Part shown: piece by piece, positions 1,205-11,958 of the stretch | How the letters are laid out: every line of letters begins with the position of its first letter | How positions within the stretch are numbered: position 1 is the stretch's first letter | Source of the DNA: Sporisorium sorghi | Taxonomy: Eukaryota; Basidiomycota; Ustilaginomycetes; Ustilaginales; Ustilaginaceae | Reading direction: 5' to 3' | NCBI GenBank assembly: GCA_023212695.1 | Contig: JALCCG010000440.1 | Location: 1 to 12,457 of the forward strand | DNA length: 12,457 nt | The notes under the pieces: generated by a model | The model's input: only the letters and a program-made list of their open reading frames with translations | Databases searched by the model: none | What the model was told of the DNA's origin: nothing | Translations under genes and position numbers: made by a program

Positions 1205-2962
1205 ATGGACGCACTCGCCTACACCTCTCCGTCGATCGATACCGTGCTCGTACTCGCATCGTACCTCTTACTCCTATCCATCTTCGGCCATGCTTTCCAA
1301 GAGCTTTTCTACGCAGGCATCTTGGGTCCCCTTGTACTCGGTGCCATCTACGCCCGACCCCTCGCCGACATCCTGCCATCAGATGTGCAATCCGCAGTAC
1401 TTTCGATCGGCTACCTGGGCCTGATCCTGCTCATTGTGCAGGGCGGCCTCGAGGCGCGCATTGACATCCTCTCCAGCCCGCGCAACTTTGCCGTCTCTGT
1501 GCTTGTTGGTGCGACGGGGGTGATGCTGCCCATCGGACTCAGCATGTCGCTTTTGCCGTTTGGGTTCGGCTACGGTTACCTGGAAAGCTTTGCGATCGGC
1601 GCCGCGCTGGCTTCCACCAGCCTGGGCACCACGTTTGCCGTGCTGAGCTCGTTCAATGGCTCGTCAGAAGCGTCCAGCAGAAGTAGCAGCACCGAAGACA
1701 ACGCAAGCAGCAGCGATGACGATGTCAAGCATGGCATCGCCAACACGCGCATCGGCGCCATCCTTATCGGCGCAGCGCTTCTTGATGATATCGTTGGTCT
1801 TGTCATCATAAGCGTCATCTCGACGCTCGGCCCAGCACAGGAAGGTGGTGGTCTCCGCACCATCGGGGCCTGGAAGATCGCCAAGCCTATCGTTTCGTCT
1901 GCGCTGCTGCTGATCGTGTCCTGGCTGCTGTCACGATTTGCACTTGGGCCAGCAGCCAGACTCTTGGCATCCCGAGTTGCGCAGTCATCGAGCAGCCACG
2001 CGATTGCAGAGCATCCATCCACCCGTTCGAGCACCACCTTTGTCTGCAAGGTCCGGGCACGCCTGCAGCGTGACCGTGGTGCTCAGCAGCTCTTGGCAGT
2101 GACGCTGCTCATCTCGACGGTGCTGGCATACTCGGTGATCAGCGAAGAGATCGGCTCGTCCCTCCTCATCGGTGCCTTTACTTCGGGAGCGATGATGAAG
2201 TACGTCTACACTTGCTTCACTCGCCGCCGCCAAGAAGATTCGAATCGCACCCGCAAGGACTCGCCGTGGTCCCCAGAATACCTCCTCTCCACCAGCACCT
2301 CGCTCGGGGTGGTCCAGGAGGTGATCCTCGTCCCCTTTTTCTTCTCGAGCATCGGATCCGCCATCCCGGTCAAGTTCATGTTCGACGGCACCACTGTCTG
2401 GCGCGGCGTGATCTTTGCGGGCCTCATGGCGTTTGCCAAAGTGTGCGCCGGAGGTTGGGTGTTTGTGGCCGACTGGATCGAGCAACGAGGCGTTAGACAA
2501 CGAGCTTTGAAAGCTGAGAGACAGAAAGAGGCGCGACGAGGAGCGGATGCACGCGATGGCAGCGGTGCAGTCGATGATGCGGGCCCGATCGAGATGCAGC
2601 CGCAAGGAAACAGCTCGGTCAGGGCACCCACCCTTGACGATCGTGTTGCCGGACCGGATGCTTACCCAGCAGACACCCCCAGTCGTCGAGGTGAACAACC
2701 AGACAGCGCACCCGTGTGGCCCGCGTCGCTGTTCCTGGGGATAGCGCTCATGTCACGCGGCGAAGTCGGCTTCCTCGTCATCAACATCGCCAGCCAGGGC
2801 GGACTCGTGAGCGAGCAGGCCTTCAACGTCGCCACCTGGGCCATTGTGCTCAATACGCTGGCTGGACCCGTATCGATCGGCATAATGATGCGCACGCAGC
2901 ATGGCCAGAACCTTTTGCAACGTGCTACGGGCAGCAACAGCCATGCGGGACGCTGGAGCTGA
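1205..2962 (+). CDS. CPA2-type monovalent cation/H+ antiporter
   Basis: A 585-residue integral membrane protein of the cation:proton antiporter-2 family (Na_H_Exchanger fold). It is expected to exchange Na+ or K+ for H+ at the plasma or an organelle membrane. Hydrophobic segments fill about residues 10-145, 180-250, 295-335, 365-425 and 505-565. Family landmarks are visible: an Asp-Asp pair in LLDDIVGLV (D194-D195) at the position of the ion-binding acidic pair, TSLGTT at 138-143, K412 in a late helix (AFAKVCAGGW), and SRGEVGFLVI (R518, E520) near the C-terminus. Two hydrophilic insertions stand out: a Ser/Asp-rich loop at about 150-176 and a charged loop at about 428-503 before the final helices. 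ATG 1205 is in strong context (ACCATGG) and directly precedes the first helix. No intron is needed. It converges on the kinase-hydrolase gene. The ion preference and membrane cannot be told from sequence. Confidence 0.92.
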   Translation: MDALAYTSPSIDTVLVLASYLLLLSIFGHAFQELFYAGILGPLVLGAIYARPLADILPSDVQSAVLSIGYLGLILLIVQGGLEARIDILSSPRNFAVSVLVGATGVMLPIGLSMSLLPFGFGYGYLESFAIGAALASTSLGTTFAVLSSFNGSSEASSRSSSTEDNASSSDDDVKHGIANTRIGAILIGAALLDDIVGLVIISVISTLGPAQEGGGLRTIGAWKIAKPIVSSALLLIVSWLLSRFALGPAARLLASRVAQSSSSHAIAEHPSTRSSTTFVCKVRARLQRDRGAQQLLAVTLLISTVLAYSVISEEIGSSLLIGAFTSGAMMKYVYTCFTRRRQEDSNRTRKDSPWSPEYLLSTSTSLGVVQEVILVPFFFSSIGSAIPVKFMFDGTTVWRGVIFAGLMAFAKVCAGGWVFVADWIEQRGVRQRALKAERQKEARRGADARDGSGAVDDAGPIEMQPQGNSSVRAPTLDDRVAGPDAYPADTPSRRGEQPDSAPVWPASLFLGIALMSRGEVGFLVINIASQGGLVSEQAFNVATWAIVLNTLAGPVSIGIMMRTQHGQNLLQRATGSNSHAGRWS

Positions 2963-3243: not shown

Positions 3244-6200
3244 TTACGAGTTGGAGGGCGTCCAGACGTTGGTCTTGAGACCCGAACCGCCGCTCTTGTT
3301 GCTCTCCTCAAACGACTTGAGCAGCGTCGTAAGCTCCTTGCCGCTGCTCGTGCATCGCATCTTGGGCGTGAGCGGCTTGGCGGGAGCGTGGAACTTGCTC
3401 AGCGCAGGCGCGTCCGACGAGAGCTGCTGCTGCATGCCCGCCTGGCCACGCAGACGAGCCTCTTCGATGGTCATCTGAGGGAACGACGGATCCCGTGCAG
3501 AAGACTCGGATGCTTCTTCTTGCTGCTCCTTCTGCTTCTCTTGCCTTCTGCCCTCGCTGGTAGCTTCGGTGACCGCCTTGTCGTCCGTGCCGAGCGCTTT
3601 CTGCGCAATTTTGGCCGGCAGTCCTGCGGCTATGGCCTCGGTGGACCTGCGCTCTTCGCTCGATGGCCGTCCATCCAGCTCCCAATCCTCCTCGTCCGCA
3701 GGAAGAGCGCCTGCCTCTGCGTCGTCCTCGTCATCGTCGACGTTGCCGTCTGAACGCGAGTGCGGCAACGATACAATCTCGTTAATGCCGCCGTCCACCG
3801 CGTTGGAAGAGGTGCTGGGCGTGAGGGTGCCTCCAGGCGCCTGGCCCTTGGCAGCAGACGAGGCAGACTCGGATTGCTTCTCGCCCGTCGCTGGATTGGC
3901 CTTTTCGCCTTGCGGTGTCTGCATCGAGCCGCTGGCCATCTCCTTGTTGACAGCCGACTCGGTACGTTTGGTAGAAGCCGACGAGGATCGAGACTTGCCC
4001 CGCTTGTCGAGTGCGGTGCGCACAAAGTGTCTCGCACTCTGCAGCGCTTTGCGACTGGCGTCTAGGAACAGGAACGCCTGGAAGACGTGGACACAGTCTT
4101 CGTAGAGCTCGTGGCGAACGGCGACGCCCGACAAGGAAGCTTTGTGGGCAAGCAAAGTCACCTCGTCTCGCAGCACCTCGGCATCTCCACACTGGATGAG
4201 CAAGGGAGGCAGACCGTGCATGTCTCCGAACAGAGGAGACACGTACGGATGGGTGAGATACTTGTCGATGTTGTCCCCGAGATAGGCCCAGACTGGGTTC
4301 ATATGGTCGCCCGACTTGGGCATGGGCAGGTAGTCGAACTCGGCGTTGGTGTCCCAAGAGTCGCAGGACATGGTGAGGTCGACCCACGGGCTGAAGAGCA
4401 TGGCGCCGCTGGGCATCTCGTAGTCGTTGTCGCGGAGGTAGTACAGCAAAGCCAGAGCAAGTCCACCGCCAGCGCTGTCGGCACCAAGCACAATGTTGCT
4501 GGGCGGGATGCCGAGATCGTCGGTGAGACGGAAGTAGGAGGCGACGCAGTCGTGGAGGGCGCCTGGGAACTTAGTTTCGGGCGCGAGACGGTAGTTGATG
4601 CCAAAGACACGGCACTCGGTGTACTTGGAGAGCGAGATGGTGAGCGGACGATGCGTGGCGGCCGACATGACAAAGTAGGCGCCTCCGTGAATGTAGAGGA
4701 TAACGCGTTCCTTGCCCTTCTGTTTGCCGCTGCGCCACTCTGCCTGAAGGCGACGCCAGGTTTGCTTGCCGACGACCCACTCGGCGCTGATCTCGCGCTT
4801 GCCATCCTCGGCGGCATCGGCCTCCGCGAGGAAGCCGCGCAGGCCGCGCTTCTTGACGCGGAACGTCACAGGAGTGATGAGACCGTCCTTGGGTGTGGGG
4901 AGGAAGGCGCCCAAGTCGAAGAAGCTCTGCAGACCTTCGATGGAAGCAAATTCGGAATACGCGGCGACATCGCGCATGACTCTGGTAAAGACGGAGGTCT
5001 CGATACCCCACGACTTTTTTGCTGGGCCGTAGATGGCGTGCGAGGCGACGGCGGTGCCGATAGTGACGCCTTGCGAAACGAGGAAGGGCAGGTAGCGCCA
5101 AGCGTTGGTGAAAGTGAGTTTGGGCGGCTTGGTCATCTTGGCAGTTGGGTTGAGACGCGCTGAAGCTGGGACCTCGGTCTTTTTGTACTGGTCCAAGAGC
5201 GAAGTGAGCGTCTTTGTTGACTCGCTGTCTTTGCGATTGACGGTGCTACTGGCGCGACGAGGTTGGCTGGCCGAGGCGGCCGGTGGTGGGGCTGAGGGTC
5301 GGACGGTAGCTTCGGACTGGCCGGTAGATGAAGCGGTTGGGCTCGCCTCGCCTTGGGCCGCTGCATCGCTCTTGTCTTTGCTTTTGCTGGAGTCGACCTT
5401 TTGCTCGGCGGGCTGAGGAGAGGCAGTCGGATCAGGGCCGCGATTGATGGTGGATGCGGCGGCTTCTGCTACTGCTTCGGTACCAGACGCGCCGCCCTGG
5501 GCAGCATTGGATTCGGACGAAGATGCAGGACGGCCCCAGCTTTCAGGCATGATAGCCATCATGACGGTCAAGTCGAGGGCCATAGCAGAGTCGCCGCGCT
5601 CTTTAGTGCGTTCCTTCTCTGGGAGGCTGTGTACTTGAGGTGCAGGGTCGATTTCTGAAGGCTCCAGTGACATGGGCGCAGGTGCCTCGGATTCGGACGG
5701 TGCGGGAGCGCTGGCATCGGCGTCGACGGGATCGGGCAGGAGCGAATCGCCGCGTTTGTAGGACCGAATGTAGCTTGCGATGCTGAGCAGAGATTGCTGC
5801 TTCTGAGGCAAGGCATCGCCGTTCTGCTGACGAAGTGCGTGCAGTCGCTGCAGGTGATTGACGGCCTCGACGGCGGTGACGGCCTTTCGCAGCTTGCGCA
5901 TGGCGGTGAGGTTGCGGAGCGCGCGGTCCTTGAGGCAGGCGCCCTTTGCACTCTCCTCGTGGAGTGGTGGCAGATTGGCGAGCCAAGGGTGAGCAAGAGC
6001 CTCATGAGCCGTCATGCGCTTCTCGGCAGGGCAGAGACAACGGAGGATAAAGTCTTTGGCCGTGTCAGAGATCTCGGACCAGTACTCTGGCTCGAACTGA
6101 ACCTGCATCTTGATGATTTGCTGAAAGAGGGTGGGTTGATCTTCGCCATAGAAGGGCGTGTAGCCGCCCAGCAGTGCGTAGGCAATGACACCGCTGGACC

Positions 6201-7476
6201 AGATATCGACGGCAGCGTTGTAGCCCTTGCCAAGGAGCACCTCGGGTGAGACGTACTGAGGCGAGCCGCACGCGGACATGAGGAGGCCCTCGTCAGGGAT
6301 GAAGCGCGAGAGGCCAAAGTCGGAAATGACAATGTCGCTGGGGTCGGACTTGTCGCGCAAGAGGATGTTTTCGGGCTTGAGGTCGCGATGAATGATGTCG
6401 TGGTCGTGGAGGTATGCGACACCCTCGAGGATCTGCTTCATGATGTGACGTGCGTCCAGCTCGTTGTAGTGCACCTTTTCGACGAGACGGTCAAAAAGCT
6501 CGCCGCCGCGGCAGAGGTCGGTGACGATGAAGACGCCTTCTTTGGTCTCATAGAGGTCCCACATCTTGATGATGTTGGGATGCTCTACCTTGCCGAGGAT
6601 GGTGATCTCCTCCTTGAGCATCTTCTCGTTGCTGTCCTTGAGAGGCTTTTTGGCGATGATCTTGAGCGCACGCTGTGTGCCTGTGGATTTGTCGACGACG
6701 GCTTTGACAACGGCAAAGGAGCCTTGACCCAGGACCTGAGGTAGAACATCGTACTTTTTCGAGAGTTGGATGGGGAGAAGAGGAGTGCCGTCCTTTTCTG
6801 TCTCCTTGAACCAGGAGCGAAAGGCGTGGTGGAGGTGAGAGCCGACCATCCTGACCTGATCTCGCTTGGATGACGTCCTACGAGGGAGTGAGCCAGTCAC
6901 GAGTCCAGCCGAGTGCGTGCCGATGCGTTCGAGGTTGGGAGCCAGTTGAGGAGGTGGAGGAGAGGCGATGGGAACAGACTCGCCGGCGTCGAGGCGGTTG
7001 TGAGGATCCTTGTGACTGTTGCGCCTCTGAAAGATGTTGGAGAGACGCTGTCGAGGCGAAACCGACGAGTCAGAGGTGGTGGAATTGTCTGTCGTGGATG
7101 GACGAGTTTGGCGCGGTGGAGTGCGGTTTTGAAGGTGCGCGGCGAGAGAGCGATGGATGCCCCGAAAAGAGAGCGGAACAGCCGAGGTGTCTGCAGTGGA
7201 TTGGTGCTGCTGCTGACTGGTGACGTTGGCTGTGTTTGGCAACTTCGACGGAGAAGCCGAAAAGTAAACGGCACGAGAGGTGTTGGCACGCGGTGCGGCG
7301 TCTGGCTCCAGATGCTGGTGCTGCTGATCGAACGGCGCAGGGGTAGTGGCAGTGAGAGAGCTGGCTAGGGTTTGGGAGCGAGTGTCAGAGGACGACTCAT
7401 TGGTTGTAGAGGTGGTGGTGGTGGTGATGGGAAGAGGAGGAGGAGGTGTAGCGGATGCGAGTGAGGGATCGGCCAT
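3244..7476 (-). CDS. CaM-kinase-type Ser/Thr kinase fused to an HSL-like alpha/beta hydrolase
   Basis: One uninterrupted frame of 1410 residues. Residues 1-240 are disordered (Ser/Thr/Pro/Gln). A complete CaMK-group kinase domain spans about 242-499: glycine loop GQGSFAVV, Lys272 (ALKIIAKK), HRDLKPEN with Asp365, DFG with Asp386, activation-loop SACGSPQYVSPE. A basic helical stretch at about 514-546 (RALRNLTAMRKLRKAV) sits where CaM kinases carry their autoinhibitory/calmodulin-binding segment. Residues 550-780 are low complexity. From about 785 comes a hydrolase-fold-3 domain: hydrophobic segment 793-816, oxyanion HGG (H930), GADSAGG with nucleophile Ser1001, GDAEVLRDE with probable acid Glu1100, and His1130 (CVHVF). 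The tail is acidic (about 1245-1271). It probably phosphorylates Ser/Thr and hydrolyses a lipid or ester; substrates are unknown. ATG 7476 (AGCATGG) is the first in-frame ATG; the frame is closed upstream by TGA at 7581-7579. The alternative is two separate proteins, the second from ATG 5136. Confidence 0.83.
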   Translation of the reverse strand: MADPSLASATPPPPLPITTTTTSTTNESSSDTRSQTLASSLTATTPAPFDQQHQHLEPDAAPRANTSRAVYFSASPSKLPNTANVTSQQQHQSTADTSAVPLSFRGIHRSLAAHLQNRTPPRQTRPSTTDNSTTSDSSVSPRQRLSNIFQRRNSHKDPHNRLDAGESVPIASPPPPQLAPNLERIGTHSAGLVTGSLPRRTSSKRDQVRMVGSHLHHAFRSWFKETEKDGTPLLPIQLSKKYDVLPQVLGQGSFAVVKAVVDKSTGTQRALKIIAKKPLKDSNEKMLKEEITILGKVEHPNIIKMWDLYETKEGVFIVTDLCRGGELFDRLVEKVHYNELDARHIMKQILEGVAYLHDHDIIHRDLKPENILLRDKSDPSDIVISDFGLSRFIPDEGLLMSACGSPQYVSPEVLLGKGYNAAVDIWSSGVIAYALLGGYTPFYGEDQPTLFQQIIKMQVQFEPEYWSEISDTAKDFILRCLCPAEKRMTAHEALAHPWLANLPPLHEESAKGACLKDRALRNLTAMRKLRKAVTAVEAVNHLQRLHALRQQNGDALPQKQQSLLSIASYIRSYKRGDSLLPDPVDADASAPAPSESEAPAPMSLEPSEIDPAPQVHSLPEKERTKERGDSAMALDLTVMMAIMPESWGRPASSSESNAAQGGASGTEAVAEAAASTINRGPDPTASPQPAEQKVDSSKSKDKSDAAAQGEASPTASSTGQSEATVRPSAPPPAASASQPRRASSTVNRKDSESTKTLTSLLDQYKKTEVPASARLNPTAKMTKPPKLTFTNAWRYLPFLVSQGVTIGTAVASHAIYGPAKKSWGIETSVFTRVMRDVAAYSEFASIEGLQSFFDLGAFLPTPKDGLITPVTFRVKKRGLRGFLAEADAAEDGKREISAEWVVGKQTWRRLQAEWRSGKQKGKERVILYIHGGAYFVMSAATHRPLTISLSKYTECRVFGINYRLAPETKFPGALHDCVASYFRLTDDLGIPPSNIVLGADSAGGGLALALLYYLRDNDYEMPSGAMLFSPWVDLTMSCDSWDTNAEFDYLPMPKSGDHMNPVWAYLGDNIDKYLTHPYVSPLFGDMHGLPPLLIQCGDAEVLRDEVTLLAHKASLSGVAVRHELYEDCVHVFQAFLFLDASRKALQSARHFVRTALDKRGKSRSSSASTKRTESAVNKEMASGSMQTPQGEKANPATGEKQSESASSAAKGQAPGGTLTPSTSSNAVDGGINEIVSLPHSRSDGNVDDDEDDAEAGALPADEEDWELDGRPSSEERRSTEAIAAGLPAKIAQKALGTDDKAVTEATSEGRRQEKQKEQQEEASESSARDPSFPQMTIEEARLRGQAGMQQQLSSDAPALSKFHAPAKPLTPKMRCTSSGKELTTLLKSFEESNKSGGSGLKTNVWTPSNS

Positions 7477-8205
7477 GCTCCGATTGATACGTGTGTGCTG
7501 AGAATGAGAAGAGCTAAGAGTGTGACACTCGAATATGCGAGCAAGCAAGGGCGAGAGAGAGAGAGAGAGAGAGAGATCTCAAGCGAAGCAATCCAGGGTT
7601 GTGCGTGATGCGGTGACGACTGACAAGCGAGAGAGAAAATCGCGGTCAGCGGTGAGAAGTGTGTGAGAGAGGGAGGAGCTGGCTGGCCGTGTGTGTGAAA
7701 GGGTGAAATTGGACGGCATCGACAGCTCGGCACGCGCGACCCTCTCTCGCCTTTCGCCTCTCGCTCTGCATGTCTAGCTCGCTCGTTGAGTTGAGTCTTT
7801 TCCCGCCTCATTTTTTCGAAGCCCACCTCCACACATCCAGTCTCGTGTCTGCACAGCGTCAAGCACGGCCTTCACGCTCCGACGCGCGGTGGAAACCCAC
7901 ACAGACCCACCGCAGCTCTCTCTTTCTCTTCTCTTGTGCCCAAAAGAGAGAGAAGTGCTGGGGTGTCGCCGGCAAACGGCTCTCTTGACCCACCGATTGC
8001 AGGATGGGCTCGGTCCGCCAGGCTGCAACTCCTCTCGAGGGTCCAGAACTCGATTTGTGCACACTCCCACGTGCTGTCTTGGTATTGACCACACCATCGC
8101 ACCGACAACATACGTCTGACATCCTCCAAAGTCCAATCATGATCAAAAGCTTGTGTGTGTAGATGTGTGTATTGACAGTAAAGACAGCGAAAGTGGTTGA
8201 ATCTT
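7477..8205 (-). promoter_or_regulatory. 5' region of the kinase-hydrolase gene and 3' end of the upstream gene
   Basis: This 729-base gap separates two genes transcribed in the same direction (minus). It must contain the 3' end of the Bre4-like gene and the promoter and leader of the kinase-hydrolase gene. On the coding (minus) strand the part nearest the start is strongly CT-rich, as is common in fungal promoters and leaders. Other visible items are a CACGTG E-box at 8068-8073, a (GA)12 run at 7553-7576, and TG-rich sequence near 8152-8172. Several minus-strand ATGs (7811, 7771, 7719) would be upstream ATGs if transcription starts above them. No AATAAA or clear TATA box was seen, and no credible gene. 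Confidence 0.5.
7553..7576. repeat. (GA)12 dinucleotide microsatellite
   Basis: Twelve perfect GA units (CT on the coding strand of the kinase-hydrolase gene) lie 77 bases upstream of its ATG, probably in the 5' leader or core promoter. Such tracts often vary in length between strains by replication slippage and can influence promoter or leader behaviour; no effect can be shown here. Confidence 0.95.
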
Positions 8206-11200
8206 TTAAACCTTGCCTAGAGCCGCGGCGGCACGGTACAAGCGCTCGTCGTACTCCTCCTTGAGCCTGTCGAAACCATGCAACGAGCTCTCGCCCACCA
8301 GGTCCTTGACGATCGCCTTGAACTTGTCCAGCTGGGCCGCCAGCGTCAACGAAGCCAGTCTGGCAGTCGTGAAGCGAAGGTACATGGGATCGCGCAGTAC
8401 GCTCCAGCTCAGCACATCTTCGCCTTCCGTCGTGCCGAGTCCGCCCTTCTCGCCCCGTTCGGCAGCCGCCCTGCTGGGCAAGAAGCGCTCCATGTTGCGG
8501 TTGCGATCCGCATACTTGAAGTGGTTCTCGAGCAACGAAAACGACGCGTGGTTGAGACGCTCGCCGTTCTTGAGCGCCTTGGAGAGCAGGTCAAAGACGG
8601 TGCACAGTTCTCCCAGATACTGCGGGTCCAGCAGCGAAGTCGACGACGAAACCAACGCTTGCCAGTCATTCTGACTTTTCTCCAGCTCGGTCACGTTTGT
8701 CTTTCTCGGGATCATGTCGCCCTGCGACGTGATGACCAACTCGTCAAAGGCTCGCACCGAAGAGAGAATGGCGCCGAGCGATTCGAGGATCGTGTGGTGG
8801 ATCGTGGCGATCTCGGCGTATCTTTCCGCCGGCCAACGCCCTCGAATGTGGAAATCCATCGTGGCCAGTGCGATCTGCATGGGATACGACGCCACCTGCG
8901 TCGAGATGGCCAAGAAGCGCGCTCGAATCACCGCTTCGCGTTCCTGCCAGAGCTTGTCGATGGCGTCGCTGCTCGAGACCTCCTTGTCTCCGTCGGCTCC
9001 TACCTGGTTTGCAAAGCCAGAACGCTGCGACTCCTGCGCGTGGATGCGATTTCTGGCAATCCAGGCCTCCACGACATCGACAAACAAGTCGTTCAGCTGG
9101 CGCGTCACCTTGGCCATGTTCTTACGCAACAGAAGGCGACTCGACACTGGGCGAGGCAACACCATGACGATGAGCGCAACAGCCATGCCGATGATGACCA
9201 ACAATACGCGCTTCCAAGCCAGGTTGATGCCAATGCCGCTGTTGGCTGTCACCTGGAGGTGCGTGTCGATCCATGAGTAGCCAACGACCAGCACGACCGA
9301 GACCGAAAGCATGATACTGGGCAGCAAGAGCATCTTGGGCGCCCAAATGCGAAGGAAGACGAGTGGGACGAACCCCACCGCGGCGGTGGCTGCAATTCCG
9401 TATGCATTGCCATTGCCCCTGCCCGTAGAGATGTACCACATAACGGTGCCGTAGAGGAGCCCGATCACGGTGCCGATGATGCGCATGGCGAAGGTGAAGA
9501 TGAGCTCGCCGCCACTGAGTGCGGCAGCGGTCTGCACCATGATGAGCGCCCAGATGCCTCGATGCTGGTAGACAAAGCCGGCCGAGTGCGGGATCACGGC
9601 GGCGATCCAGACGGCAAACGAGGCAATGCACATCCGCAACGCATAGAGACCTGTAGGCCCAGACACAAAGTGGTAGGTGGCTGCCACGGCTCGTCCAATG
9701 TGATGTCCAACGTTGGTGGGCGGCAGTGCATCTGGGTCACGAGCATAGAAGCGCTTCTTGTGTTCACGCTTGGCCTTTGCTTTTTTGGAGGACTTCGAGC
9801 CGGTGTTCTTCTCCTCATCGATTGGTCGCGAGGAGCCGGAAGAAGGGGCGCGAGTATCATCGTCTTCGTCGAAATCAGCATCGCCTTCCGCGTCGAGTTG
9901 GTCGGCTAGGCTGCTGGTTCGGGAGCTGTTGGACGACCAAGCTGTGCGAGCTCGATCCTGTCTAAATTCGCTGTCAATGACCTCCTCGCGATCGAATTGG
10001 CCGTCGCCCTGTCCGAAGCGATCCAAACCGTCGGCGGATCCGTGCTTGTCGCTGCTGAGGATGGCAAAGAGGCGGCTGAGATGCTTGGGAGCCCAGATGC
10101 GCTTTTTTGTTCCAGCACGGTCGGCGGCGCTGAGTACCTCTTCGTGCAAGCGCAAGATAGAGTCGAGTGCGTCGACCAGGTTGGTGACGTACACGAGACA
10201 GATGTGGAGCGGTCGTCCGCCCATTCGGAACGAGCGAACGGATTCCTTTGTCTGCAAAAAGTGCTCGTTGAGATCGAGGTCGGGGTGCAAGGCACGGAAA
10301 TGATCGGCGTAGGGTTGCAACAGCTCGAGCCTCTTGTCCGTGAGCAAGCTCTGGCGGGCGCTTTCGAGTTGGGTCTTGGTTTCATGCAGGTCGTGGAGCA
10401 CCTGATCGATGGGTCGCTTCTGACGCCAAGAGAGATTGGCCTCGAAATAGTCCTGCACGGCTTGGATCGAGTTGGCGGCGGCGTCGAGGGAGGGCGCGGC
10501 AGCGCGTTGGAGGATGTTGAGCATGCGCGCCATGGGGACTTGCTGAGCGGCCTCACTCGTGCGGATGTCCTGGTGAACGCGGTGCAGGACGTTGGTTTCG
10601 TGTAGCCTGATGGGCTCGAGGCGATCCTTGGTGGGCAGGGCTTCAGTGCCGTGCTCGCCATCGACCGAGTAGCCGCGTTCAGCCTTGTTTGGATCCCAGT
10701 TCTCGTCAAAGACGTTGGGATCGGTGAGACCGAATTCGCGGGCGGCCAATCGCCAAAAGCTGGTGAGGAGCGCAAGCTGGAGGTGGACCGTGCGAGTCTT
10801 GCGAAGGGCGGCTTTCATATCATGCGAACTAAAGTAGGATCGATAAAACTCCATGCCCAGAAAGATGGTTTGGCCTGTGATGTCTTCGTTGTGCTGGGCG
10901 CTGGCGGAACGGTTCGCCTTTGCATCGGCAAGCAGACTACGGGCGACGTTGGCGGCGTCGTCTTCGGCTTTGCGATGTTGATGGAGCAGATCGCTCGAAG
11001 GTGTGTCGCCGTGAGTGTCGGAGCGGTGGAGATGAGTCTCGGGATCGTAAAGCTGAGAAACGTCGGCGAGTGCGGACTGGTGTATGCGGATGAGGTCGCG
11101 ATTGGTGCCGAGCATGCGAACGAAGGTGAGTTGCCAGGCGTACGCGAGCGTCTCGGGGAAGACGAGGATCTGCGCAGCGAGACAGATGGCGAAGGAGCAA

Positions 11201-11958
11201 CCGATGGGGATCATGAAGACTTCGCCGAGTGTATACCTAGCATAGGGGAAGAGAGGGCCGTACATGCACATGACATCGAGCACGATGAGGAGGAAGATGC
11301 TGCCAATCTTGAGTTTGGGACGCTTGACTTGCAAAACGGCAGCAAAGTAGCATCCAAGCATGAGGAAGATGCCAAAGACGGCAGTGGAGCGCACGTCGAG
11401 GAAATCGCCTCTGAAAACGGCAATGATGGTCGAGGCTTCCGGGTTGGTGGAAGAAGCAGCGGAGGAACGGACGCGCTGAGTAGCCGCTTGCAGGACTTGG
11501 ACGCTTCGAGCGCGAGCAGCGGCTGCCGCAGCAGCACAACCCCATGCCCAGCCGATAAGAGAGCCGATGGCCAAGATGGAAAAGGCAAGGAAGAAGAGGA
11601 AGAAGGGATAGGAGGGCGGGATCATGAGGGTGAGCATGCACCCGAAGAAAGCGGCTTGGCCGAGCGTGCGGAGGGATGGACCAGGGATCATGAGAACAAA
11701 GTTGGCCCAGGTGGCGACCCAGCATCGTGCGACGATTCTCCAGGAGCGAGCCGAGGTGAGGTTGTCCTTGATCCAGGCGGGCACCTTGGACGCTTTTTTG
11801 GGCTTCGCGGCGGCTTGTTGGTCATGGTCGGGTTTGGTTGAAGAAGCAGCAGGGTCGGCCTGCTTCACCTCGTTGGTAGAATTTGAGCCTGTTTGAGTGG
11901 CAGCCTGCATCGTGGGAGCTGGAGGCGGCTCCGTGTGACTGTTTGCGGGTGTTGACAT
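8206..11958 (-). CDS. Bre4-like ArAE_2/FUSC-family membrane transporter
   Basis: A 1250-residue protein with two hydrophobic blocks, matching the fungal family made of an ArAE_2 N-terminal 6-TM domain, an FUSC-like second membrane domain and an ArAE_2 C-terminal domain (brefeldin A sensitivity/Bre4-like, related to aromatic acid exporters). Residues 1-60 are hydrophilic. The first membrane block runs about 72-145 and 188-270. A long soluble helical region covers about 275-640, then an acidic disordered stretch (about 685-720) and a basic patch ending near 736 (KKAKAKREHKKRF). The second block, about 768-935, includes YQHRGIWALIMVQTAA, typical of FUSC proteins. The rest is a soluble helical C-terminal domain. 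ATG 11958 has GCC before it (G at -3); the frame needs no intron and ends at TAA (8208-8206). Family members are implicated in drug sensitivity and organic anion or small-molecule export. The substrate and the membrane (ER/secretory or plasma) are not decided by sequence. Confidence 0.9.
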   Translation of the reverse strand: MSTPANSHTEPPPAPTMQAATQTGSNSTNEVKQADPAASSTKPDHDQQAAAKPKKASKVPAWIKDNLTSARSWRIVARCWVATWANFVLMIPGPSLRTLGQAAFFGCMLTLMIPPSYPFFLFFLAFSILAIGSLIGWAWGCAAAAAAARARSVQVLQAATQRVRSSAASSTNPEASTIIAVFRGDFLDVRSTAVFGIFLMLGCYFAAVLQVKRPKLKIGSIFLLIVLDVMCMYGPLFPYARYTLGEVFMIPIGCSFAICLAAQILVFPETLAYAWQLTFVRMLGTNRDLIRIHQSALADVSQLYDPETHLHRSDTHGDTPSSDLLHQHRKAEDDAANVARSLLADAKANRSASAQHNEDITGQTIFLGMEFYRSYFSSHDMKAALRKTRTVHLQLALLTSFWRLAAREFGLTDPNVFDENWDPNKAERGYSVDGEHGTEALPTKDRLEPIRLHETNVLHRVHQDIRTSEAAQQVPMARMLNILQRAAAPSLDAAANSIQAVQDYFEANLSWRQKRPIDQVLHDLHETKTQLESARQSLLTDKRLELLQPYADHFRALHPDLDLNEHFLQTKESVRSFRMGGRPLHICLVYVTNLVDALDSILRLHEEVLSAADRAGTKKRIWAPKHLSRLFAILSSDKHGSADGLDRFGQGDGQFDREEVIDSEFRQDRARTAWSSNSSRTSSLADQLDAEGDADFDEDDDTRAPSSGSSRPIDEEKNTGSKSSKKAKAKREHKKRFYARDPDALPPTNVGHHIGRAVAATYHFVSGPTGLYALRMCIASFAVWIAAVIPHSAGFVYQHRGIWALIMVQTAAALSGGELIFTFAMRIIGTVIGLLYGTVMWYISTGRGNGNAYGIAATAAVGFVPLVFLRIWAPKMLLLPSIMLSVSVVLVVGYSWIDTHLQVTANSGIGINLAWKRVLLVIIGMAVALIVMVLPRPVSSRLLLRKNMAKVTRQLNDLFVDVVEAWIARNRIHAQESQRSGFANQVGADGDKEVSSSDAIDKLWQEREAVIRARFLAISTQVASYPMQIALATMDFHIRGRWPAERYAEIATIHHTILESLGAILSSVRAFDELVITSQGDMIPRKTNVTELEKSQNDWQALVSSSTSLLDPQYLGELCTVFDLLSKALKNGERLNHASFSLLENHFKYADRNRNMERFLPSRAAAERGEKGGLGTTEGEDVLSWSVLRDPMYLRFTTARLASLTLAAQLDKFKAIVKDLVGESSLHGFDRLKEEYDERLYRAAAALGKV

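What the first reader, a model, noticed from the sequence alone, without database searches (positions are those of the whole stretch)
3244..7476. Single open frame joining a CaM-kinase-like domain to an HSL-like lipase/esterase
Both enzymes look catalytically complete (kinase Lys272, Asp365, Asp386; hydrolase HGG, Ser1001, Glu1100, His1130), and no stop occurs over 1410 codons, including about 285 codons of linker. I know of no established family that combines a CaMK-type kinase with an alpha/beta hydrolase fold-3 enzyme. If real, it would put a Ca2+-type signalling kinase and a lipid or ester hydrolase in the same molecule, for instance with the kinase controlling the hydrolase in cis. This is the strongest candidate for an undescribed system in the window.
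Basis: partly seen in the sequence, partly recalled or inferred. Interest (0 to 1): 0.78.

Follow-up and report, generated by a model that had tools for sequence, protein, structure and literature searches.

The report
Fused kinase-lipase enzyme of smut fungi
One uninterrupted gene in this smut fungus encodes a calcium-type protein kinase joined to a lipase-like enzyme, and many relatives show the same join; it may be a lipase with a built-in signalling switch, which has not been tested.

Summary
It is neither a chance frame nor a merged gene model: 67 relatives, from Ustilaginales to Malassezia, carry both domains in that order, the linker holds conserved motifs, and the hydrolase's conserved first helix lies upstream of Met781.

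Tilletia has the halves as separate genes, probably by later fission; trees do not settle this.

Signs of coupling: 31 of 38 long fusions carry a CaMKI-type site in the hydrolase tail (2.0 expected), though not this query in full. Malassezia-type fusions lack that site and the calmodulin-type helix; their kinase diverges faster, and four have a predicted pseudokinase, while the hydrolase triad stays intact.

Best reading: a kinase held beside the lipase it controls. The fusion is near certain; control in cis is inferred. Ten library searches listed no paper describing it.

The parts
3244..7476 (-). Whole fused gene, single open frame, 1410 aa (computed mass 153 kDa)
   Evidence: mass
5980..6738 (-). 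Protein kinase domain, residues 247-499 (Lys272, Asp365, Asp386; activation-loop Ser401, Ser/Thr in 64 of 68 rows)
5830..5898 (-). Helix homologous to the CaMKI autoinhibitory/calmodulin-binding segment, residues 527-549
   Evidence: homology in the alignment; pattern found in 38 of 38 long fusions, 0 of 25 Malassezia-type, 4 of 4 Tilletia kinases
5737..5760 (-). Linker stretch YKRGDSLL, residues 573-580, shared with the tails of Tilletia kinases; an R-x-x-S candidate site
5533..5601 (-). Linker motif DSxMxxDLxVM (within residues 626-648), including near-invariant Met632 and Met639
   Evidence: pattern in 35 of 38 long fusions
5458..5487 (-). Linker motif GTxxVAxAA (residues 664-673), also near the start of Tilletia hydrolases
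5185..5235 (-). First predicted helix of the hydrolase half, residues 748-764 (holds LTSLLDQY)
   Evidence: conserved consensus
5035..5100 (-). Hydrophobic helix of the hydrolase's N-terminal extension, residues 793-814
4078..4698 (-). Alpha/beta hydrolase fold-3 core, residues 927-1133 (HGG 930-932, Ser1001, Glu1100, His1130)
3331..3360 (-). C-terminal tail site MRCTSSGKEL, residues 1373-1382; the CaMKI-type pattern is full in 31 of 38 long fusions but here has Cys at the -3 position
3304..3336 (-). C-terminal amphipathic motif ELTTLLKSFEE, residues 1381-1391

Best explanation
The locus makes one 153 kDa protein. A CaMKI-type kinase with its own regulatory helix is tethered by a long, fast-changing linker to an HSL-like lipase/esterase that other Basidiomycota make without the kinase. 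Proposed working: Ca2+/calmodulin, and an upstream kinase acting on the activation-loop Ser/Thr, switch the kinase on; it then phosphorylates basic-directed serines in the hydrolase's C-terminal tail, perhaps also in the linker, in the same molecule, and so changes the lipase's activity or its place on a lipid surface. Shown from sequence: the fusion, both intact active sites, the helix, conserved linker motifs and, in most long relatives, the tail site. Inferred: calmodulin binding, phosphorylation in cis, its effect, the lipid substrate and the cellular place. The direction is a guess: that the tail restrains the enzyme and phosphorylation relieves it.
For: Same order of domains in 67 relatives. 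In 38 long fusions the kinase residues K/D/D and hydrolase S/E/H are intact in 38 of 38, and the helix pattern is found in 38 of 38. The hydrolase tail matches Hyd-x-R-x-x-S/T-x-x-x-Hyd in 31 of 38, against 2.0 expected from shuffled tails; linker R-x-x-S/T sites number 148 against 82.6 expected. In Malassezia-type fusions the helix is gone (0 of 25), the tail pattern is gone (0 of 23), the kinase diverges 2.40 times as fast as the hydrolase (1.03 in long fusions) and four have Asn for the HRD Asp, while S/E/H is intact in 24 of 24. Catalysis by the kinase thus seems dispensable where helix and tail site are gone.
Against: The query itself lacks the full tail pattern (Cys at -3; R1374-x-x-S1377 remains), and so do 6 other long fusions. 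Only 1 of 7 Tilletia hydrolases has it. The pattern also occurs in 29 of 93 unfused hydrolase tails (9.0 expected), so it need not be meant for the fused kinase; similar sites are used by other kinases (recalled). Rows are related, so counts are not independent, and Malassezia is one lineage. Tilletia has the halves apart. The two-domain model gave no usable contact (pLDDT 63, pTM 0.43). Nothing here shows calmodulin binding, phosphorylation or lipase activity.
Confidence: 0.45

Rival explanations
1. Tether, not switch: one half places the other (for example the hydrolase's hydrophobic N-terminal extension puts the kinase on a lipid surface), and the two act on different targets without regulating each other.
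For: The linker is long and mostly not conserved, and the hydrolase carries a hydrophobic helix that could bind membranes (inference). The fused kinase is intact in 38 of 38 long fusions, as expected if it has its own targets.
Against: In four Malassezia-type proteins the kinase is a predicted pseudokinase and yet stays fused, and the conserved tail site suggests a regulated hydrolase.
Confidence: 0.22
2. Dual output: besides the fused protein, an internal promoter or start at Met632 gives a free hydrolase of 779 aa (84 kDa), so the locus is partly a nested pair of genes.
For: Met632 is Met in 36 of 38 long fusions and has G at -3 and G at +4. Tilletia hydrolases start 30-47 residues before the GTxxVAxAA motif; Met632 lies 33 before it in the query.
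Against: The residues just before Met632 are as conserved as those after it (D629 35 of 38, S630 37 of 38), which a plain start codon does not explain. The DSxM pattern is found in 0 of 25 Malassezia-type proteins. No transcript data were available.
Confidence: 0.15
3. Passive fusion: two neighbouring genes were joined in an ancestor and the join persists without functional coupling.
For: Tilletia has them apart; the same hydrolase is also listed joined to methionine aminopeptidase 2 in 5 of 120 listed proteins, all mushrooms by name, though these may be merged gene models.
Against: The join is held in 67 relatives, with conserved linker motifs in the long ones, and helix, tail site and kinase constraint change together in Malassezia.
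Confidence: 0.15
4. Artefact: the join is an assembly or gene-model error.
For: Merged models may occur with this hydrolase elsewhere.
Against: The frame is intronless and open in the raw DNA, and relatives from several sources show the same join.
Confidence: 0.03

Closest known systems
Calcium/calmodulin-dependent protein kinase I (CaMKI, CaMKID; PDB 1a06, 6t28)
   Same: Best solved relatives of the kinase half, aligned through the regulatory helix; intact catalytic residues.
   Different: CaMKI ends soon after its regulatory helix (recalled); here a linker and a hydrolase follow. The activation-loop Thr is Ser in the query.
HSL-like esterases EstD11 and EstE5 (PDB 7at0, 3fak)
   Same: Best fold matches of the hydrolase model (7at0: 31% identity, TM 0.88 by target length); same HGG and GxSxG motifs.
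   Different: About 295 aa, without the fungal N-terminal extension, C-terminal tail or kinase.
Unfused basidiomycete hydrolases of the same family (for example P0240, P0266)
   Same: Same hydrolase with its N-terminal extension and a C-terminal basic-serine motif in many.
   Different: No kinase domain listed; N-terminus of its own.
Tilletia kinase (P0123-P0126) and hydrolase (P0067, P0069-P0074)
   Same: Closest unfused relatives of each half; kinase keeps the helix and RGDS stretch, hydrolase keeps the GTxxVAxAA motif in 6 of 7.
   Different: Two separate genes with distant locus numbers.
Mammalian hormone-sensitive lipase and its regulating kinases (recalled, not tested)
   Same: A lipase of this superfamily controlled by basophilic kinases.
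   Different: The kinases there are separate proteins acting in trans.

Membership tests
CaMKI-type protein kinase | Protein kinase fold with VAIK Lys, HRD Asp and DFG Asp | tested here: met
   intact in 38 of 38 long fusions
CaMKI-type protein kinase | C-terminal autoinhibitory/calmodulin-binding helix | tested here: met
   by homology only: alignment, pattern; Malassezia-type fusions fail it (0 of 25)
CaMKI-type protein kinase | Activation-loop Thr for an upstream kinase | tested here: inconclusive
   Ser401 in the query; Thr in 61 and Ser in 3 of 68 rows
CaMKI-type protein kinase | Ca2+/calmodulin-dependent activity | not testable with these tools
   needs protein
HSL-like alpha/beta hydrolase (Abhydrolase_3) | HGG oxyanion motif, GxSxG nucleophile and acid-His triad | tested here: met
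   S/E/H intact in 38 of 38 long and 24 of 24 covered Malassezia-type rows
HSL-like alpha/beta hydrolase (Abhydrolase_3) | Fold match to solved HSL-like esterases | tested here: met
   EstD11 and EstE5
NCBIfam GESAG motif subfamily of HSLs (NF058651) | Curated score cut-off | tested here: not met
   173 bits against a cut-off of 430
Steryl acetyl hydrolase (Say1_Mug180, PF10340) | Pfam gathering score, 21 bits | tested here: met
   47 bits, but Abhydrolase_3 scores 156; substrate not testable
Kinase-hydrolase fusion seen in smuts and Malassezia | Both domains in one frame, kinase first | tested here: met
Kinase-hydrolase fusion seen in smuts and Malassezia | Full CaMKI-type site in the hydrolase tail (long members) | tested here: not met
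   query has Cys at -3; 31 of 38 long fusions have it

The most novel reading that the evidence does not exclude
A self-contained Ca2+-operated lipase: a CaMKI-type kinase covalently joined to its own lipase substrate and phosphorylating a serine in the lipase tail in cis. In Malassezia the switch was dismantled (tail site and calmodulin-type helix lost, kinase drifting, one clade a pseudokinase), leaving a permanently fused lipase under other control.
Probability: 0.3. Interest if true: 0.78.

Novelty: new variant of a known kind. Interest (0 to 1): 0.6.

Why it matters
Control of lipases by kinases is usually studied as two proteins meeting in trans. A covalent pair found from smuts to Malassezia, with one genus that has the halves apart (Tilletia) and one clade with a predicted dead kinase, is a natural experiment on what the join is for. 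It would tie Ca2+ signalling directly to lipid or ester breakdown in plant-associated smuts and in skin yeasts, and the tail serine makes the idea directly testable.

Tried and rejected
Separate hydrolase start at Met781: rejected. The predicted first helix of the hydrolase half (748-764) lies upstream, and Met781 is Met in 4 of 38 long fusions.

Ribosome-skipping motif NPGP: absent from all 68 rows checked.

Is Tilletia unfused by ancestry or by a later split? Hydrolase tree: Tilletia falls among the fused rows next to Malassezia (94/89, below the starred threshold), but holding the fused rows as one clade is not rejected (p 0.154). Kinase tree: p 0.128. Joined tree: p 0.453. Unresolved. The GTxxVAxAA motif, in 6 of 7 Tilletia hydrolases and 0 of 161 other hydrolase-only rows (found in 0.1-0.5% of shuffled Tilletia N-termini), favours fission, but a lineage that had the motif before fusing is not excluded. 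The same pattern was found in only 27 of 68 fused rows and in 0 of 17 Malassezia-type rows.

Domain contact: the two-domain model of P0057 was poor and was not used.

Unfused kinase orthologue in Agaricomycotina or Pucciniomycotina: none seen in the 120 listed of 5219 hits, which are crowded by vertebrate two-domain S6 kinases; cannot tell.

DNA of relatives: nothing confirmed in viral contigs or genome contigs.

Rows left out: the hydrolase tree used 33 of 68 fused and 5 of 7 Tilletia rows, hand-chosen; the kinase tree lost P0062, P0065, P0161 and own-genome loci L005 and L006 because my pattern missed them; the joined tree used 26 fused rows; tail counts used 93 of 162 unfused rows and 23 of the 25 Malassezia-type rows. 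The rate ratio used pairs with hydrolase identity under 97% (634, 134 and 8 pairs).
Full report
What was checked. Pfam finds Pkinase at 247-499 and Abhydrolase_3 at 926-1133; the other matches overlap these two. The best solved relatives of the whole protein are CaMKI and CaMKID, and the alignment to 1a06 runs on through the regulatory helix. The hydrolase half modelled alone is confident (pLDDT 89.5, pTM 0.91) and its best fold matches are the HSL-like esterases EstD11 and, lower in the list, EstE5.

Is it one protein? The full-length search gave 770 hits among 7984 scored candidates and listed 120; 66 of the 120 carry both PF00069 and PF07859, and P0239 from the hydrolase search makes 67. 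Of the 66, 26 bear an organism name: 25 are smuts or their kin, from Sporisorium, Ustilago, Melanopsichium, Kalmanozyma, Moesziomyces, Pseudozyma, Testicularia, Thecaphora, Jaminaea, Ceraceosorus, Exobasidium, Meira and Tilletiaria to six Malassezia. I place these in Ustilaginomycotina from general knowledge; only Tilletia horrida and M. cuniculi were looked up. The 26th is a fern protein that is 71% identical to the Exobasidium one, probably a contaminant. Between the columns of residues 501 and 782 the rows hold 82 to 369 residues, and the linker is poorly conserved overall. In the 38 long fusions (P0001-P0038) two short stretches stand out: D629 35, S630 37, M632 36, L636 37 and M639 37 of 38, and G665 37, T666 36 and G680 37 of 38. 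Met781 is Met in 4 of 38, and the hydrolase's predicted first helix lies before it. No NPGP motif occurs in the 68 rows. In the own genome the next best match to the kinase piece is 37% identical and to the hydrolase piece 45% over 130 residues, so no close second copy was found among the candidates scored.

The exception. Tilletia has the kinase (P0123-P0126, 433-445 aa) and the hydrolase (P0067, P0069-P0074, 984-1110 aa) as separate proteins. Their gene numbers lie far apart: OC846_005950 and OC846_005504, V8E36_004780 and V8E36_005815, CF319_g3257 and CF319_g3874; that numbers follow the chromosome is my assumption. The Tilletia kinase tails keep the helix (4 of 4) and an RGDS stretch. Six of 7 Tilletia hydrolases carry GTxxVAxAA and the seventh a near variant; they begin 30-47 residues before it. 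None of 161 other hydrolase-only rows has it in the stretch searched. This looks like a split inside the linker of a once-fused gene. Three trees do not reject the alternative (p 0.154, 0.128, 0.453), so fission is favoured, not shown.

How it may work. In 31 of 38 long fusions the hydrolase tail has Hyd-x-R-x-x-S/T-x-x-x-Hyd, for instance MRRSSSGKEL or MRRTASNVAI, against 2.0 expected from shuffled tails. I recall this as the CaMKI substrate consensus; AMPK-type kinases favour a similar one, so the site alone does not name the kinase. The seven without it are P0001 (the query, MRCTSSGKEL), P0008, P0010 and P0014 (IRQSSSGKEL), P0027 (MRKTGSNVVL), P0032 and P0036. In 93 unfused hydrolase tails 29 have the full pattern (9.0 expected) and 60 the shorter Hyd-x-R-x-x-S/T (45.8 expected); 56 of 94 carry a SHPD-type motif, often after IRRS. 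So a basic-serine site seems older than the fusion. In the linker, R-x-x-S/T sites number 148 against 82.6 expected over the 38. Rows are related, so none of these counts is independent.

Malassezia as a test case. The 25 Malassezia-type fusions are 6 named ones and 19 whose hydrolase is nearer to a named Malassezia than to any other named row. The helix pattern is found in 0 of 25, the full tail pattern in 0 of 23 examined, and the last 90 columns of the query are nearly empty in the short rows. The kinase diverges 2.40 times as fast as the hydrolase there, against 1.03 in the long fusions, and 4.19 times in a set of five that holds the four predicted pseudokinases and P0054. Four (P0060, P0062, P0063, P0065), one clade in the hydrolase tree, have Asn for the HRD Asp; three of them also lost the DFG Gly, as did P0064, whose HRD is intact. 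Of the 19 Malassezia-type rows covering all three kinase positions 15 are intact; the hydrolase triad is intact in 24 of 24 covered. So where the helix and the tail site are gone, kinase catalysis seems to become dispensable, while the hydrolase triad is kept. This fits a kinase whose main client is the attached hydrolase. It may be one historical event and does not prove it.

Verdict. The fusion as a real coding unit is near certain (about 0.95, my judgement). Functional coupling with phosphorylation in cis is my preferred mechanism at 0.45, and the fully self-contained Ca2+ switch at 0.3. Ten searches of the held library listed no paper about this protein; I saw listings and abstract starts and opened no paper. 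The parts are known and databases carry the architecture under mixed names; as far as those searches go the combination is undescribed.

Noticed in passing
window 1205-2962 (+): Open frame of 585 aa with a sodium/hydrogen exchanger domain (PF00999, E 1.3e-25), pointing towards the 3' end of the fused gene.
   Followed up: no
window 8206-11958 (-): Open frame of 1250 aa with ArAE_2_N (E 4.6e-52) and BRE4 (2.8e-24) domains, on the same strand as the fused gene and upstream of it.
   Followed up: no
window 7553-7576: A (GA)n run just upstream of the fused gene's start codon.
   Followed up: no
P0095, P0098, P0111, P0112, P0116: Five listed mushroom proteins join methionine aminopeptidase 2 (PF00557) to the same hydrolase; in the rows looked at the hydrolase motif is in the later part. 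A second fusion or merged neighbouring genes.
   Followed up: partly
P0266: A Serendipita protein named 'Related to calmodulin-dependent protein kinase' for which only hydrolase domains are listed; the name was probably carried over from the fused smut protein.
   Followed up: no
P0041: A protein filed under the fern Adiantum nelumboides is 71% identical to the Exobasidium fusion, probably a fungal contaminant.
   Followed up: partly
P0060, P0062, P0063, P0065: Predicted pseudokinases fused to an intact hydrolase in unnamed Malassezia-type proteins; P0065 stands for 542 member sequences.
   Followed up: yes
P0055, P0058: Two unnamed divergent fusions, 48% or less identical to other fused rows in their main alignments, without the helix pattern; lineage unknown.
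   Followed up: partly
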